57,994 nt of DNA from Candidatus Moranbacteria bacterium RIFOXYB1_FULL_43_19 (GTDB lineage Bacteria; Patescibacteriota; Minisyncoccia; Moranbacterales; UBA11712). The notes under the pieces are model-generated. The model was given only the letters and a program-made list of their open reading frames with translations. It searched no databases and was not told the origin of the DNA. The stretch lies in contig MFSH01000007.1 of the NCBI GenBank assembly GCA_001784875.1, positions 1-57,994 of the forward strand, given 5' to 3'. A program made the position numbers and the translations under genes. Shown here piece by piece: positions 1 through 3,541 of the stretch (position 1 is its first letter; each line of letters opens with the position of its first letter).

Positions 1-90
1 AACCTTAATTGTTAGCTATCTCCAAGGTTAGATTTTAAATGATAAATCGAATAGAAGGAAACTTAGGTTTTGGATGATTTACTGCGTTGT

Positions 91-121
91 TTGACATTGT
101 GCTTCGTATGTGCCATATTGT
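91..121 (+). promoter_or_regulatory. Candidate sigma70-type promoter for the small-gene block
   Basis: A perfect TTGACA at 91-96 is followed by CATATT (114-119, spacer 17) or TATTGT (116-121, spacer 19). It lies about 50 bases before the first strong-SD gene. The match is by eye only. The stretch before it (1-90) shows no gene; it has a weak AACCTT/AAGGTT dyad near its start. Confidence 0.4.
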
Positions 122-173: not shown

Positions 174-653
174 ATGATACCGAAAGATCAAGCTTTTCTA
201 CAAAAGGTCAGAGCCTTTATGGCGCAGATCCAACCCTATTACTATGAGTTTGCCGCGGAGATCGAGACGTGGCATTTGGGCCCGGGCGTCTTTGCATTTA
301 TGGCTCGTTACATGGAGTCCGGCGGGATTCTCCTTAATCCGGGGATTGATGAGGCGGGGAATATCATGCTTGATATTTTCTCCGGGAGAACCGATATCAC
401 CCGCGAGTGCTTCAAGCCTGATATCCCGATAGAAAGACATCGCCTCGACGTCGGTTTCCTGCCCTTTCTCCTTGAGAGAGGATCCAAGGATTCCTGGTGG
501 AAAAAAGATCCGCAGTGGAGCTTCGCGAATGGCCAACAAGCAATGGAAGTTGTCCGGGGAATAATCGTCCCCCCATTTGCGCTCTTCGACAAACCGCACT
601 TCATCAATCCTTCACTGCCTCGTGTGGTATATTTTGGGCCGAACTATCAATGA
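174..653 (+). CDS. Hypothetical protein, first gene of strong-SD block
   Basis: A 159-residue protein that I do not recognise. It is rich in aromatic residues (PYYYEF near the start, SWWKKDPQWSF near residue 115) and has no signal peptide, membrane segment or repeat. The start is supported by a purine-rich AAGGGGG site about 6 bases upstream and by the promoter-like sequence at 91-121. GC-rich codons (ATC, GAG, CCG, GGC) look unlike the AT-richer genes further on. Three more small genes with strong ribosome binding sites follow on the same strand, so this is probably one transcription unit ending at the terminator near 1870. Function unknown. Confidence 0.6.
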   Translation: MIPKDQAFLQKVRAFMAQIQPYYYEFAAEIETWHLGPGVFAFMARYMESGGILLNPGIDEAGNIMLDIFSGRTDITRECFKPDIPIERHRLDVGFLPFLLERGSKDSWWKKDPQWSFANGQQAMEVVRGIIVPPFALFDKPHFINPSLPRVVYFGPNYQ

Positions 654-682
654 GCTTCAAATAAAGGTAAGGAGAATAGAAG

Positions 683-1202
683 ATGACAAGATACACGGAA
701 ATGACTGCAAAGGAAGGAAGGAAGGAAGGAAGGAAGGAAGGAAGGAAGGAAGGAAGGAAGGAAGTTCCTGCCGAATGTCTGGAACCTGTTTTTCAAACCT
801 TTTACAGAAGCGAATTTCTTCGTCGAACCATGGGAAAACTGTGAGCTCGCCGACTGTGCCGATTTCCGAATGGATTCGGATGAAGTTTTTTTCTTCGTCA
901 CCGACGAAGGACTGATTAATTTCCTGAAAGAGGTTAAAGGAGAGCTTTGTCTCTTCGGCGCCTACAATCAGATCAATGTGTGTCAGATGAGGGCGCGGGG
1001 CCACGTCGCACTCGCAGAGGGGCATTCCGAAATCGAGCGGATCAGGAAGCGCCTACGCGACAGGATTGAATCCAGGGTGGGAGCACCGGTTCACAGGCTC
1101 AGCGAGAAGGAGGCCAAAGAGCGGTGTGTCATTCTTGAAAACGGTCTGCTGTTCCGATTCCTCGTCAGTTCCTACGCATACAGCATGTACGAACGTAGCT
1201 AA
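683..1202 (+). CDS. Putative phase-variable hypothetical protein (GGAA tract; out of frame as sequenced)
   Basis: An AAGGAG site (669-674) is placed 8 bases before ATG 683. The first nine codons read MTRYTEMTA, then the frame enters 13 perfect GGAA units (712-763), read as repeated KEGR. In the sequenced state this frame stops at 842-844 after residues EVPAECLEPV and so on. The long downstream open frame, ending at 1202, is in another register: it begins KFLPNVWNLFFKPF right after the tract and has no start of its own (the frame is closed by TGA at 702). Losing one unit or gaining two would join the two parts into a protein of about 170 residues. The position of the tract near codon 10 is typical of contingency genes. 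Product unrecognised. A wrong repeat count in the assembly is the alternative. Confidence 0.6.
712..763 (+). repeat. Tetranucleotide tract (GGAA)13
   Basis: Thirteen uninterrupted GGAA units lie near the 5' end of the gene that starts at 683. Because 4 is not a multiple of 3, each gain or loss of a unit changes the reading frame. The unit count was taken directly from the sequence. Confidence 0.95.
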
Positions 1203-1232: not shown

Positions 1233-1397
1233 GTGATAATCTTGATGAAAACGTCGGAAGGGTTTGTTTGGATGCCGATTCGCCGTTGCACGATATGCGG
1301 CCAGGAAAACCCCGACCAACTGAAAAAATGCATCGAGCAAAAGGAAAAGGGGCTCGCAGAATTTCTGAAAAATGGGGGAGAATTGAGAGCCGCATAA
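1233..1397 (+). CDS. Small Cys-containing hypothetical protein
   Basis: A 54-residue protein starting at GTG 1233, with a textbook AAGGAGG site (1218-1224) 8 bases upstream that decides the start. The middle reads RRCTICGQENPDQLKKCIEQ, so two cysteines sit in a CxxC knuckle with a third Cys 12 residues later; this could be a partial zinc knuckle but the fourth ligand is not obvious. It lies between the GGAA-tract gene and the next strong-SD gene, with short spacers. Function unknown. Confidence 0.6.
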   Translation: MIILMKTSEGFVWMPIRRCTICGQENPDQLKKCIEQKEKGLAEFLKNGGELRAA

Positions 1398-1416: not shown

Positions 1417-1800
1417 ATGGACTTTCGTCCACGAGTATTGGCAGTAGGGATGAACCTGCTCAAAGAGGAGGTTATGGATGAGGGACTAGTGCAAAGTCTG
1501 GAGAACATAACCATTGGTCATCTGAACGGGTGTACGCACATGGGTCTCCGAGGGGAAAATATTGTCTTCAACTTTTCGGTTGATCCTTCCGTCATGACGC
1601 CCGAGATCCCCGTCGTCTTCCGCATCAGTCTCCTGCCGTCCTGTCGGACAGACCTCACGAGGCTCGAAAGGGATGTCGTTGCGACCAAAATCGAGCGCGA
1701 CTTCCATCGCATTCTTTACAAGAGGCCGAATATTCTGGTTTTAGTGGAATGTCTAGGGGCCAAGCAGGTCGGAATGTCGGTTCCTGAAGAAAAGGAATAG
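1417..1800 (+). CDS. Hypothetical protein with an extended Shine-Dalgarno site
   Basis: A 127-residue protein of unknown family. Its start at ATG 1417 is preceded by AAGGAGGTGATC (1403-1414), a 12-base match to the complement of the 16S rRNA 3' end, the strongest such site in the window. The protein is acidic and mixed alpha/beta in appearance (segments such as VLAVGMNLL and NILVLVECLG), without a signal peptide. It is the last gene before the terminator near 1839-1877. No function is proposed. Confidence 0.6.
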   Translation: MDFRPRVLAVGMNLLKEEVMDEGLVQSLENITIGHLNGCTHMGLRGENIVFNFSVDPSVMTPEIPVVFRISLLPSCRTDLTRLERDVVATKIERDFHRILYKRPNILVLVECLGAKQVGMSVPEEKE

Positions 1801-1838
1801 CAGTAATTCTGCAGGAGCTAAGAAAAAAACACTCGTCG

Positions 1839-1877
1839 GCTCACTCTGGGTAAATCCTAGGGTGAGCTATTTTTTAT
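1839..1877 (+). terminator. Rho-independent terminator of the small-gene block
   Basis: GCTCAC (1839-1844) pairs with GTGAGC (1862-1867), and the inner TCTGGG/CCTAGG extends the stem with two wobble pairs. A T-rich run follows immediately (ATTTTTTATT). It closes the four-gene strong-SD block. Confidence 0.75.
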
Positions 1878-1927
1878 TACTCAAAAATAGACTATAATAG
1901 CTTAAGTTTTAATACTTTTCTCCATTC

Positions 1928-1949
1928 CCCGAAATACAAGGTTCTGACC
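1928..1949. repeat. 22-bp direct repeat, left copy
   Basis: The 22 bases 1928-1949 (beginning CCCGAAATACAAGG) recur perfectly and in the same orientation at 3467-3488. The two copies bracket the single gene 2055-3458. A TATAAT (1893-1898) lies just upstream of this copy and could be a promoter for the bracketed gene. Confidence 0.9.
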
Positions 1950-2054
1950 ACAATATCCTTGTATGATGGATCGGAAAAATGCCTTGTTTTGAGGTGTTTT
2001 TTTATTTGAAAATCTACTGTAAGATATATACAGTTAAACAAATATCTAAAGCCT

Positions 2055-3458
2055 ATGGGAATTGAAGATGAATCAAAGAAAAGCGAAACACCAATAGTCA
2101 ACGAAGTAAAGGAAGATGAGAAAGGAACGGTTAAAAAGAAAATCGATATTCTTGGTGTCGGCGAAATTGAATATACGGAAAAAACGGTGATGTTTCCGGA
2201 GAAAATTGTTCAGAAAACGGGCGGGGTGAAAGGGTATATTCGGAAGATGATTTCATGGGAAGAATTAATAAGATTTTGGGATCTTGATGAAAGTGAGTGG
2301 GAGAAAATAAAAGAAGGACAGGTTTATGATTCAAGAGAAGATTTAGAGGAAGAAAATAAACAAAAATTAGCAAGGGGTAGGATGGACTTATTGTGGGACG
2401 ACAATACTTTAGATAAACACCCTCGAAAAAAATCACTAGAAAATTTTTTAATGACCGACGGATTCAATAAAATTATTTCTGAGTTAACTAACGAGGAATT
2501 TATCAATCAGACATTTAATCATGTTGTATTAGGTCGGCGGGAAGGACAACGAGAGTTAACAAAAGAGCGCATGCTTGAAATGTTAAATACAAAGGAGCTT
2601 AATTTGCCTTTCGATTATTACGGATTATTCTATGATCTTGAGGATGATAGACTTCTTTCCAGCTACGAATTATTTGGCAAGGCGAATTTGTCAGATGATT
2701 TATTGAAAAAATATATTCTATGTTATGAAAGTGATAGACTAATAGATCACTATTATTCTAAGGGTGACAAAATTTTGGTTTATCTTAAGTCAGATGTTTC
2801 CGAGAATGATTATATTTTATTTGAAAAAGAAATTAAATATGACGAAAAAGAAGGACCGTTGTTGAGCATAAAAACCGAGAGAAATAAACATGACGATATA
2901 ATATTCCCGGACTTTGCTTTGTCAGAAGAAGAAAAGAAATTGATTATTGGTAAATTAGAAAAATGTAAGAATGTTTATTATTATTCAAGTTATGGTTTAA
3001 ATCTTACAAATCAACAGGAGTTTTGGAGGGGTTATCATTTTCATGGTAAATATAATGCAAATGGGATAAGTCCTAATAATATTGTCCTTGGTTTTAAGTT
3101 TGATACCCGAAATTCCGTTTTGCGAGATTATTGCACGAAAATTCTTAATTTGGTGAAAGAACAAAAGGCGAGAAAAAGCGAAAAGGATTCATATTATTAT
3201 CGAAAAAATTCAAGAGATAAAGATGCTCGAAGTCTTGCCATTAATACAGTGAAAAGTTTAGTGGAACCAATGAGAGAATGGAAAGGACAAAAGGTTTCTG
3301 CGACAGGGCGTATCGGCAACAGTCTCGAGCGAGGAGAGCATCCATACTTGCCAATAGTTGTGAATCATCCCAACCTTCCTGAACTTCGTTGGTGCCATGC
3401 AGATTATGCAGCTATTCCGACAAAAAACGGCTATAACATTATAGAAATGATAACTTAG
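2055..3458 (+). CDS. Hypothetical protein in a direct-repeat-bracketed cassette
   Basis: A 467-residue, highly charged soluble protein that I do not recognise. It is rich in Lys/Glu and has many Tyr-rich patches (YYYSSYGLN, YYYRKN). No signal peptide, membrane segment or clear catalytic motif is seen. The C-terminal part contains WCHADYAAIPTKNGYNIIEM, which resembles a small folded domain but matches nothing I can name. The start ATG has no Shine-Dalgarno site, unlike the block just upstream. The gene is AT-rich and lies alone between two 22-bp perfect direct repeats, with terminator-like hairpins outside on both sides. This looks like an inserted one-gene cassette; function unknown. Confidence 0.7.
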   Translation: MGIEDESKKSETPIVNEVKEDEKGTVKKKIDILGVGEIEYTEKTVMFPEKIVQKTGGVKGYIRKMISWEELIRFWDLDESEWEKIKEGQVYDSREDLEEENKQKLARGRMDLLWDDNTLDKHPRKKSLENFLMTDGFNKIISELTNEEFINQTFNHVVLGRREGQRELTKERMLEMLNTKELNLPFDYYGLFYDLEDDRLLSSYELFGKANLSDDLLKKYILCYESDRLIDHYYSKGDKILVYLKSDVSENDYILFEKEIKYDEKEGPLLSIKTERNKHDDIIFPDFALSEEEKKLIIGKLEKCKNVYYYSSYGLNLTNQQEFWRGYHFHGKYNANGISPNNIVLGFKFDTRNSVLRDYCTKILNLVKEQKARKSEKDSYYYRKNSRDKDARSLAINTVKSLVEPMREWKGQKVSATGRIGNSLERGEHPYLPIVVNHPNLPELRWCHADYAAIPTKNGYNIIEMIT

Positions 3459-3466
3459 GAGTATTT

Positions 3467-3488
3467 CCCGAAATACAAGGTTCTGACC
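3467..3488. repeat. 22-bp direct repeat, right copy
   Basis: Perfect copy of 1928-1949, beginning 9 bases after the stop codon of the bracketed gene. Distance between the two copies is about 1.54 kb. Confidence 0.9.
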
Positions 3489-3513
3489 CTCATATGTTGA
3501 TATTATATTCCCG

Positions 3514-3541
3514 CAAAACGCCTGAAATACGGCGGTTTTTG
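3514..3541 (+). terminator. Probable terminator after the cassette gene
   Basis: AAAACGCC, an 8-base loop, then GGCGGTTTTT: a short stem with one bulged G followed by a run of five T. It sits 55 bases after the stop codon at 3458. Confidence 0.5.

What the first reader, a model, noticed from the sequence alone, without database searches (positions are those of the whole stretch)
683..1202. Putative phase-variable gene switched by (GGAA)13
A good ribosome binding site and start lead into 13 perfect GGAA units at codon 10. With 13 units the frame stops at 842; with 12 or 15 it would read through a 140-codon frame that has no start of its own. This is the arrangement of contingency loci known from Haemophilus and Neisseria. 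I know of no well-described case in Patescibacteria.
Basis: partly seen in the sequence, partly recalled or inferred. Interest (0 to 1): 0.8.

Follow-up and report, generated by a model that had tools for sequence, protein, structure and literature searches.

The report
GGAA-repeat on/off switch, Patescibacteria orphan gene
A run of thirteen identical four-letter DNA repeats lies just after the start of an unknown gene in a tiny uncultured bacterium, exactly where adding or losing one repeat would turn the gene's protein on or off, a trick well known in Haemophilus but not described for this large bacterial group; the switching itself has not been seen.

Summary
(GGAA)13 is perfect at 712-763 and begins at codon 10 of a frame opened by ATG 683, which has a good Shine-Dalgarno. 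With 13 units translation stops at 842-844 (53 aa). With 9, 12, 15 or 18 units it runs to 1202 (167-179 aa). One correction: the downstream frame does hold an ATG, at 870, but it has no ribosome-binding site.

The tract is an extreme outlier. It is the only tetranucleotide array above 3 copies in 201 kb of this genome, and the only (GGAA)6 among 380 Patescibacteria genomes. The 145-codon body looks coding and sits in a four-gene operon with its own promoter-like site and terminator. Similar strong-SD, GC-richer small-gene operons occur elsewhere in the genome and family.

The protein has no relative in the Patescibacteria genomes searched, GTDB contigs, viral contigs, phages, Pfam, PHROGs or NCBIfam. 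So neither the homologue test nor the read-length test could be run.

The same arrangement occurs in other phyla. Two Planctomycetota homologues (75% identical) carry 10.75 and 7.25 units.

Best reading: a translational contingency locus caught OFF. It is a new member of a known kind in a phylum where I found no described on/off case. Length variation is inferred, not shown.

The parts
91..119 (+). sigma-70-like promoter of the operon (TTGACA, 17 nt, CATATT, extended TG)
   Evidence: 10 of 12 matches; similar numbers occur in shuffles, so position upstream of the first gene is the main support
174..653 (+). gene 1 of the operon, 159 aa orphan protein, strong SD
   Evidence: no Pfam, PHROG or NCBIfam family, no credible relative in 124 genomes of the order
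669..674 (+). Shine-Dalgarno AAGGAG for the switch gene
   Evidence: -9.2 kcal/mol
683..844 (+). reading frame as assembled (13 units): 53 aa, ends TGA 842-844 = OFF product
712..763 (+). (GGAA)13 tract, perfect; encodes (EGRK)n in every frame
765..1202 (+). 145-codon body of the switch gene plus stop (TAA 1200-1202), in frame with ATG 683 only at 12, 9, 15... units
   Evidence: GC by codon position 0.57/0.35/0.63, as in the neighbour genes; frame open by chance about 1%
870..872 (+). first in-frame ATG of the body, no SD; possible weak internal or re-initiation start (110 aa)
1233..1397 (+). gene 3 of the operon, 54 aa, CxxC...C motif, GTG start with strong SD
   Evidence: -11.6 kcal/mol
1417..1800 (+). 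gene 4 of the operon, 127 aa orphan protein, strongest SD (AAGGAGGTGAT)
   Evidence: -12.7 kcal/mol; no credible relative in the order
1838..1878 (+). intrinsic terminator closing the operon; its sequence recurs in a family member
   Evidence: 13 pairs, T-run; 86% identity to G004:C36, where it closes another strong-SD orphan gene

Best explanation
This is a translational on/off (phase-variable) gene. Slipped-strand mispairing during replication adds or removes GGAA units in the tract at codons 10-27. Each unit shifts the reading frame by one base. One length class in three (12, 15, 9 ... units) joins ATG 683 to the 145-codon body and makes a protein of about 170 aa with a charged, flexible EGRK N-terminal tail. 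The other two classes give 50-80 aa nonsense peptides. The assembled genome holds the OFF state (13 units). Shown here: tract, SD, start, frames, coding character of the body, operon context, uniqueness. Inferred: that the length varies in the population, that the protein is made and functional, and that the variation is selected. The product has no evident signal peptide or membrane segment, so it is probably cytoplasmic. What it does is not known.
For: Perfect 13-unit tract within the first 10 codons after an SD and ATG. The frames switch exactly as required. The body is coding-like in only that + frame: codon-position GC 0.57/0.35/0.63 and a codon score of 0.15 bits per codon, close to genes 1 and 4. 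It contains no further stop or frameshift, which argues against a decayed gene. No other array above 3 copies in 201 kb, and no (GGAA)6 in 379 other Patescibacteria. The same layout (SD, ATG, GGAA tract, long body out of frame by one unit) occurs before an acyltransferase in Eubacteriales, lipoprotein-like genes in Thermaceae and long exported proteins in Planctomycetota. Two Planctomycetota homologues 75% identical carry different tract lengths, 10.75 and 7.25 units, and sit in opposite OFF frames. No MutS in this genome or its family (0 of 8, against 11 of 14 controls), so repair of slippage is likely poor. In H. influenzae, tetranucleotide tracts sit just after the start and change at about 1e-4 per generation (PMC2651432).
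Against: No direct evidence of length variation: one assembly, no reads, no second strain. The body has no homologue anywhere searched, so conservation of the frame cannot be tested. A 145-codon frame would stay open by chance about 1% of the time. It is the only such tract found, whereas classical phase-variable species carry many. The product shows no surface or restriction-modification signature.
Confidence: 0.62

Rival explanations
1. A recent, neutral or harmful microsatellite expansion has broken an orphan gene in this strain; the tract is a lesion, not a switch.
For: The gene is out of frame in the only sequence known. The gene and its neighbours 1 and 4 are not conserved even in the same genus, so loss may cost little. 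The genome lacks MutS, so runaway expansion is plausible.
Against: The body has no other stop or frameshift in 145 codons and keeps codon structure. The tract is exactly at the N-terminus, where contingency tracts sit, and no comparable expansion exists in 201 kb.
Confidence: 0.2
2. The 13-unit state is not OFF: the body is still made by re-initiation at ATG 870 after the stop at 842-844, or by +1 ribosomal frameshifting in the tract, and the repeat tunes amount or N-terminus rather than switching.
For: ATG 870 is in frame and lies 25 nt after the OFF stop. A terminating ribosome could scan forward.
Against: No SD at ATG 870 (+0.3 kcal/mol), and the coding signal extends upstream of 870 to the tract, so a 110-aa product would lack 35 coding codons. 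No known slippery site was identified.
Confidence: 0.1
3. The repeat count in the assembly is wrong or a popped bubble of a mixed population; the true major form is ON (12 or 15).
For: Multi-contig assembly, probably metagenome-derived; the site lies 0.7 kb from a contig end, and that end is a repeated sequence (window 8-86 equals contig C6 1-79).
Against: 52 bp is shorter than a usual short read, so the count can be read directly. A mixed population would itself be phase variation.
Confidence: 0.05
4. The first 1.9 kb is foreign or chimeric sequence joined to the contig.
For: GC about 50% in 174-1800 against 30-37% just after, and no relatives.
Against: The terminator is shared with a family member and closes the same kind of operon there. 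The downstream intergenic repeat at 1924-2003 is also family-wide. Similar GC-richer strong-SD small-gene operons lie inside other contigs of this genome and of its genus.
Confidence: 0.03

Closest known systems
Tetranucleotide contingency loci of Haemophilus influenzae (lic, lex2A, lav, modA; PMC2651432, PMC9022572)
   Same: Perfect tetranucleotide tract immediately after the start codon; loss or gain of a unit shifts the frame between a full protein and an early stop; hydrophilic, positively charged repeat peptide
   Different: GGAA is not among the eight in-ORF units listed for H. influenzae; the product is an orphan without surface or methyltransferase features; only one such locus found; length variation not shown
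GGAA-led genes in Planctomycetota, Eubacteriales and Thermaceae found here (L042, L043, L052, L060, L068, L069)
   Same: SD, ATG, GGAA tract within the first codons, long body one unit out of frame; tract length differs between homologues (L043, L068)
   Different: Bodies unrelated to this one; several carry acyltransferase or exported-protein features
Hypervariable PTD-repeat surface gene of a Gracilibacterium (PMC6851277)
   Same: Repeat-bearing hypervariable gene in a Patescibacterium, with slippage discussed
   Different: 9-base in-frame repeats, synonymous variation, no on/off frame change; surface protein

Membership tests
SSR-mediated translational phase-variable (contingency) locus | Perfect short tandem repeat far longer than the genomic background | tested here: met
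   13 units; next longest tetranucleotide array in 201 kb has 3
SSR-mediated translational phase-variable (contingency) locus | Unit length not divisible by 3, tract inside the 5' end of an ORF with SD and start | tested here: met
   ATG 683 with AAGGAG, tract from codon 10
SSR-mediated translational phase-variable (contingency) locus | One length class gives a full-length coding frame, the others early stops | tested here: met
SSR-mediated translational phase-variable (contingency) locus | Tract length differs between cells, strains or homologues | not testable with these tools
   No reads, no second strain, no homologue of the body
SSR-mediated translational phase-variable (contingency) locus | Body is a real protein, conserved in frame in a relative | tested here: inconclusive
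   Coding-like composition but no relative found
SSR-mediated translational phase-variable (contingency) locus | Typical product: surface structure, adhesin, LOS enzyme or DNA methyltransferase (usual, not obligatory) | tested here: not met
   No family match at the curated score cut-offs; no hydrophobic segment, best 19-residue mean hydropathy 1.15. Not a defining feature, so it does not exclude membership
In-frame hypervariable repeat gene as in Gracilibacteria BD1-5 | Repeat unit a multiple of 3, frame kept | tested here: not met
   Unit is 4 bases

The most novel reading that the evidence does not exclude
A functioning slipped-strand on/off switch in a Patescibacterium, controlling a lineage-unique, probably cytoplasmic protein in a strong-SD orphan operon. 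To my knowledge it would be the first frame-switching contingency locus described in this phylum.
Probability: 0.55. Interest if true: 0.65.

Novelty: new member of a known kind. Interest (0 to 1): 0.52.

Why it matters
Phase variation by simple repeats is known mainly from pathogens and commensals with many such loci. A clean case in an ultra-small, probably host-dependent Patescibacterium would show that these cells, with about 1 Mb genomes and no MutS, also hedge by frame switching. It would also mark an orphan protein as one whose expression is worth randomising, for example in encounters with hosts or phages. It can be checked directly in existing metagenome reads.

Tried and rejected
Homologues of the body: own genome, family (8), order (131), class (384) and phylum (380) genomes (overlapping sets), GTDB contigs, IMG/VR contigs and phage records gave none; one hit at E 8e-4 with four stops inside is chance. 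Pfam E 0.005 to an FAD oxidoreductase is below the cut-off. AlphaFold on the single sequence gave pLDDT 36, not usable, so no fold search was made. Hits of genes 1 and 4 in the order (E 0.004-0.005, with stops) were judged chance. The Uhrbacteria (GGAA)7 hit, the only Patescibacteria record among 37, is intergenic with no body. The terminator motif found nothing in viral contigs. Tract as SD for ATG 775: that frame scores as non-coding.

Full report
What is there. The window is contig C7 (57,994 bp) of a 1.0 Mb, 23-contig, 96% complete genome. It starts with a compact operon on the + strand: promoter-like site 91-119, gene 1 at 174-653, the switch gene from 683, gene 3 at 1233-1397, gene 4 at 1417-1800, and a 13-pair intrinsic terminator at 1838-1868 with its T-run. 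All four genes have Shine-Dalgarno sequences (-9 to -13 kcal/mol). GC is about 50% against 43% for the window.

The tract. Bases 712-763 are exactly 13 GGAA units. The frame from ATG 683 meets the tract at codon 10 and, with 13 units, stops at TGA 842-844 after 53 aa. Counts of 9, 12, 15 and 18 give 167, 171, 175 and 179 aa ending at 1202; the remaining counts between 8 and 19 give 49-82 aa.

Is the body a gene? In the frame that 12 units would join, 765-1199 has no stop, codon-position GC of 0.57/0.35/0.63 and a positive codon score, matching genes 1 and 4; the other + frames have 3 and 7 stops and negative scores. An order-1 simulation leaves such a frame open about 1% of the time. The evidence for coding is good but not overwhelming, because no homologue exists to confirm it.

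How unusual is it? In 201,566 bases of the same genome there are 611 two-copy and 4 three-copy tetranucleotide arrays, and one 13-copy array. (GGAA)6 occurs in no other of 380 Patescibacteria genomes. In the GTDB collection (84,980 species) the pattern SD-ATG-(GGAA)5 gave 37 records, one of them from a Patescibacterium (Uhrbacteria), and that one is intergenic without a coding body. In several others the tract is followed by a long body one unit out of frame: an Acyl_transf_3 protein in Eubacteriales, lipoprotein-like genes in Thermaceae, and long exported-looking proteins in Planctomycetota. Two Planctomycetota proteins 75% identical over 912 residues have tracts of 10.75 and 7.25 units, one needing a gain and the other a loss to come into frame. 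This shows that N-terminal GGAA tracts change length between relatives in environmental bacteria. It is evidence for the mechanism, not for this locus.

Context. Comparable operons of short, GC-richer, strong-SD orphan genes occur elsewhere in this genome (L032, L033, L034) and in its family (L027 in the same genus, L023 in G004). The terminator of L023 is 86% identical to the one here. One such orphan protein (L034 119-421) is conserved in the genus and family but nowhere else in the order genomes searched, so such genes can be real and lineage-bound. The switch gene is still rarer: absent even from two genomes of the same genus. MutS (PF00488) is absent from all 8 family genomes and present in 11 of 14 controls. 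From general knowledge, tetranucleotide slippage in H. influenzae does not depend strongly on mismatch repair, so this is permissive rather than decisive.

Mechanism. The most likely reading is a translational contingency locus in its OFF state. Tract, start, frames, coding body and operon are shown. Length variation, expression and benefit are inferred. The ON product would carry a hydrophilic EGRK tail, in line with the hydrophilic repeat peptides of H. influenzae tracts (PMC2651432), and has no evident signal or membrane segment. Its function is unknown.

Known or new. It works like Haemophilus tetranucleotide contingency loci and meets every membership feature that one sequence can show. 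The defining one, length variation, was not testable. No paper found in the searched open-access library describes a frame-switching repeat in Patescibacteria; the nearest is an in-frame hypervariable gene in a Gracilibacterium. That library lacks most subscription papers. I therefore file it as a likely new member of a known kind in a new phylum, of moderate interest.

Noticed in passing
window 1-86 and G000:C6:1-79: Contigs C6 and C7 of the same genome begin with the same 79 bases (100% identity, same direction) and then diverge: a repeated leader or promoter-like region where the assembly broke.
   Followed up: partly
window 1924-1984 and 3463-3523; copies in G001, G003, G004, G006, G007: A family-wide intergenic repeat (CCCGAAATACAAGGTTCTGACC...) flanks the AT-rich 467-aa ORF 2055-3458 on both sides and recurs around genes in related genomes, as if marking inserted genes.
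   Followed up: partly
L027:5298-6198, L023:972-1478, L032:12836-13302, L033:11286-11513, L034:119-424: A recurring class of operons of short, GC-richer, often cysteine-rich orphan genes with very strong Shine-Dalgarno sites in this Patescibacteria family; some carry near-identical terminators.
   Followed up: partly
L043, L068, L052, L060: Groundwater and lake Planctomycetota with GGAA tracts at the N-terminus of large exported-looking proteins, all assembled out of frame, with tract length differing between homologues: likely phase-variable surface proteins.
   Followed up: partly
L042:4590-5729: Eubacteriales acyltransferase (Acyl_transf_3) with an N-terminal (GGAA)9.5 tract, assembled one unit out of frame.
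   Followed up: partly
window 865-880: Small hairpin (TCCGAA-TGGA-TTCGGA) overlapping ATG 870 and followed by a T-run; could give polarity when translation stops at 842, but such sites are expected by chance.
   Followed up: no
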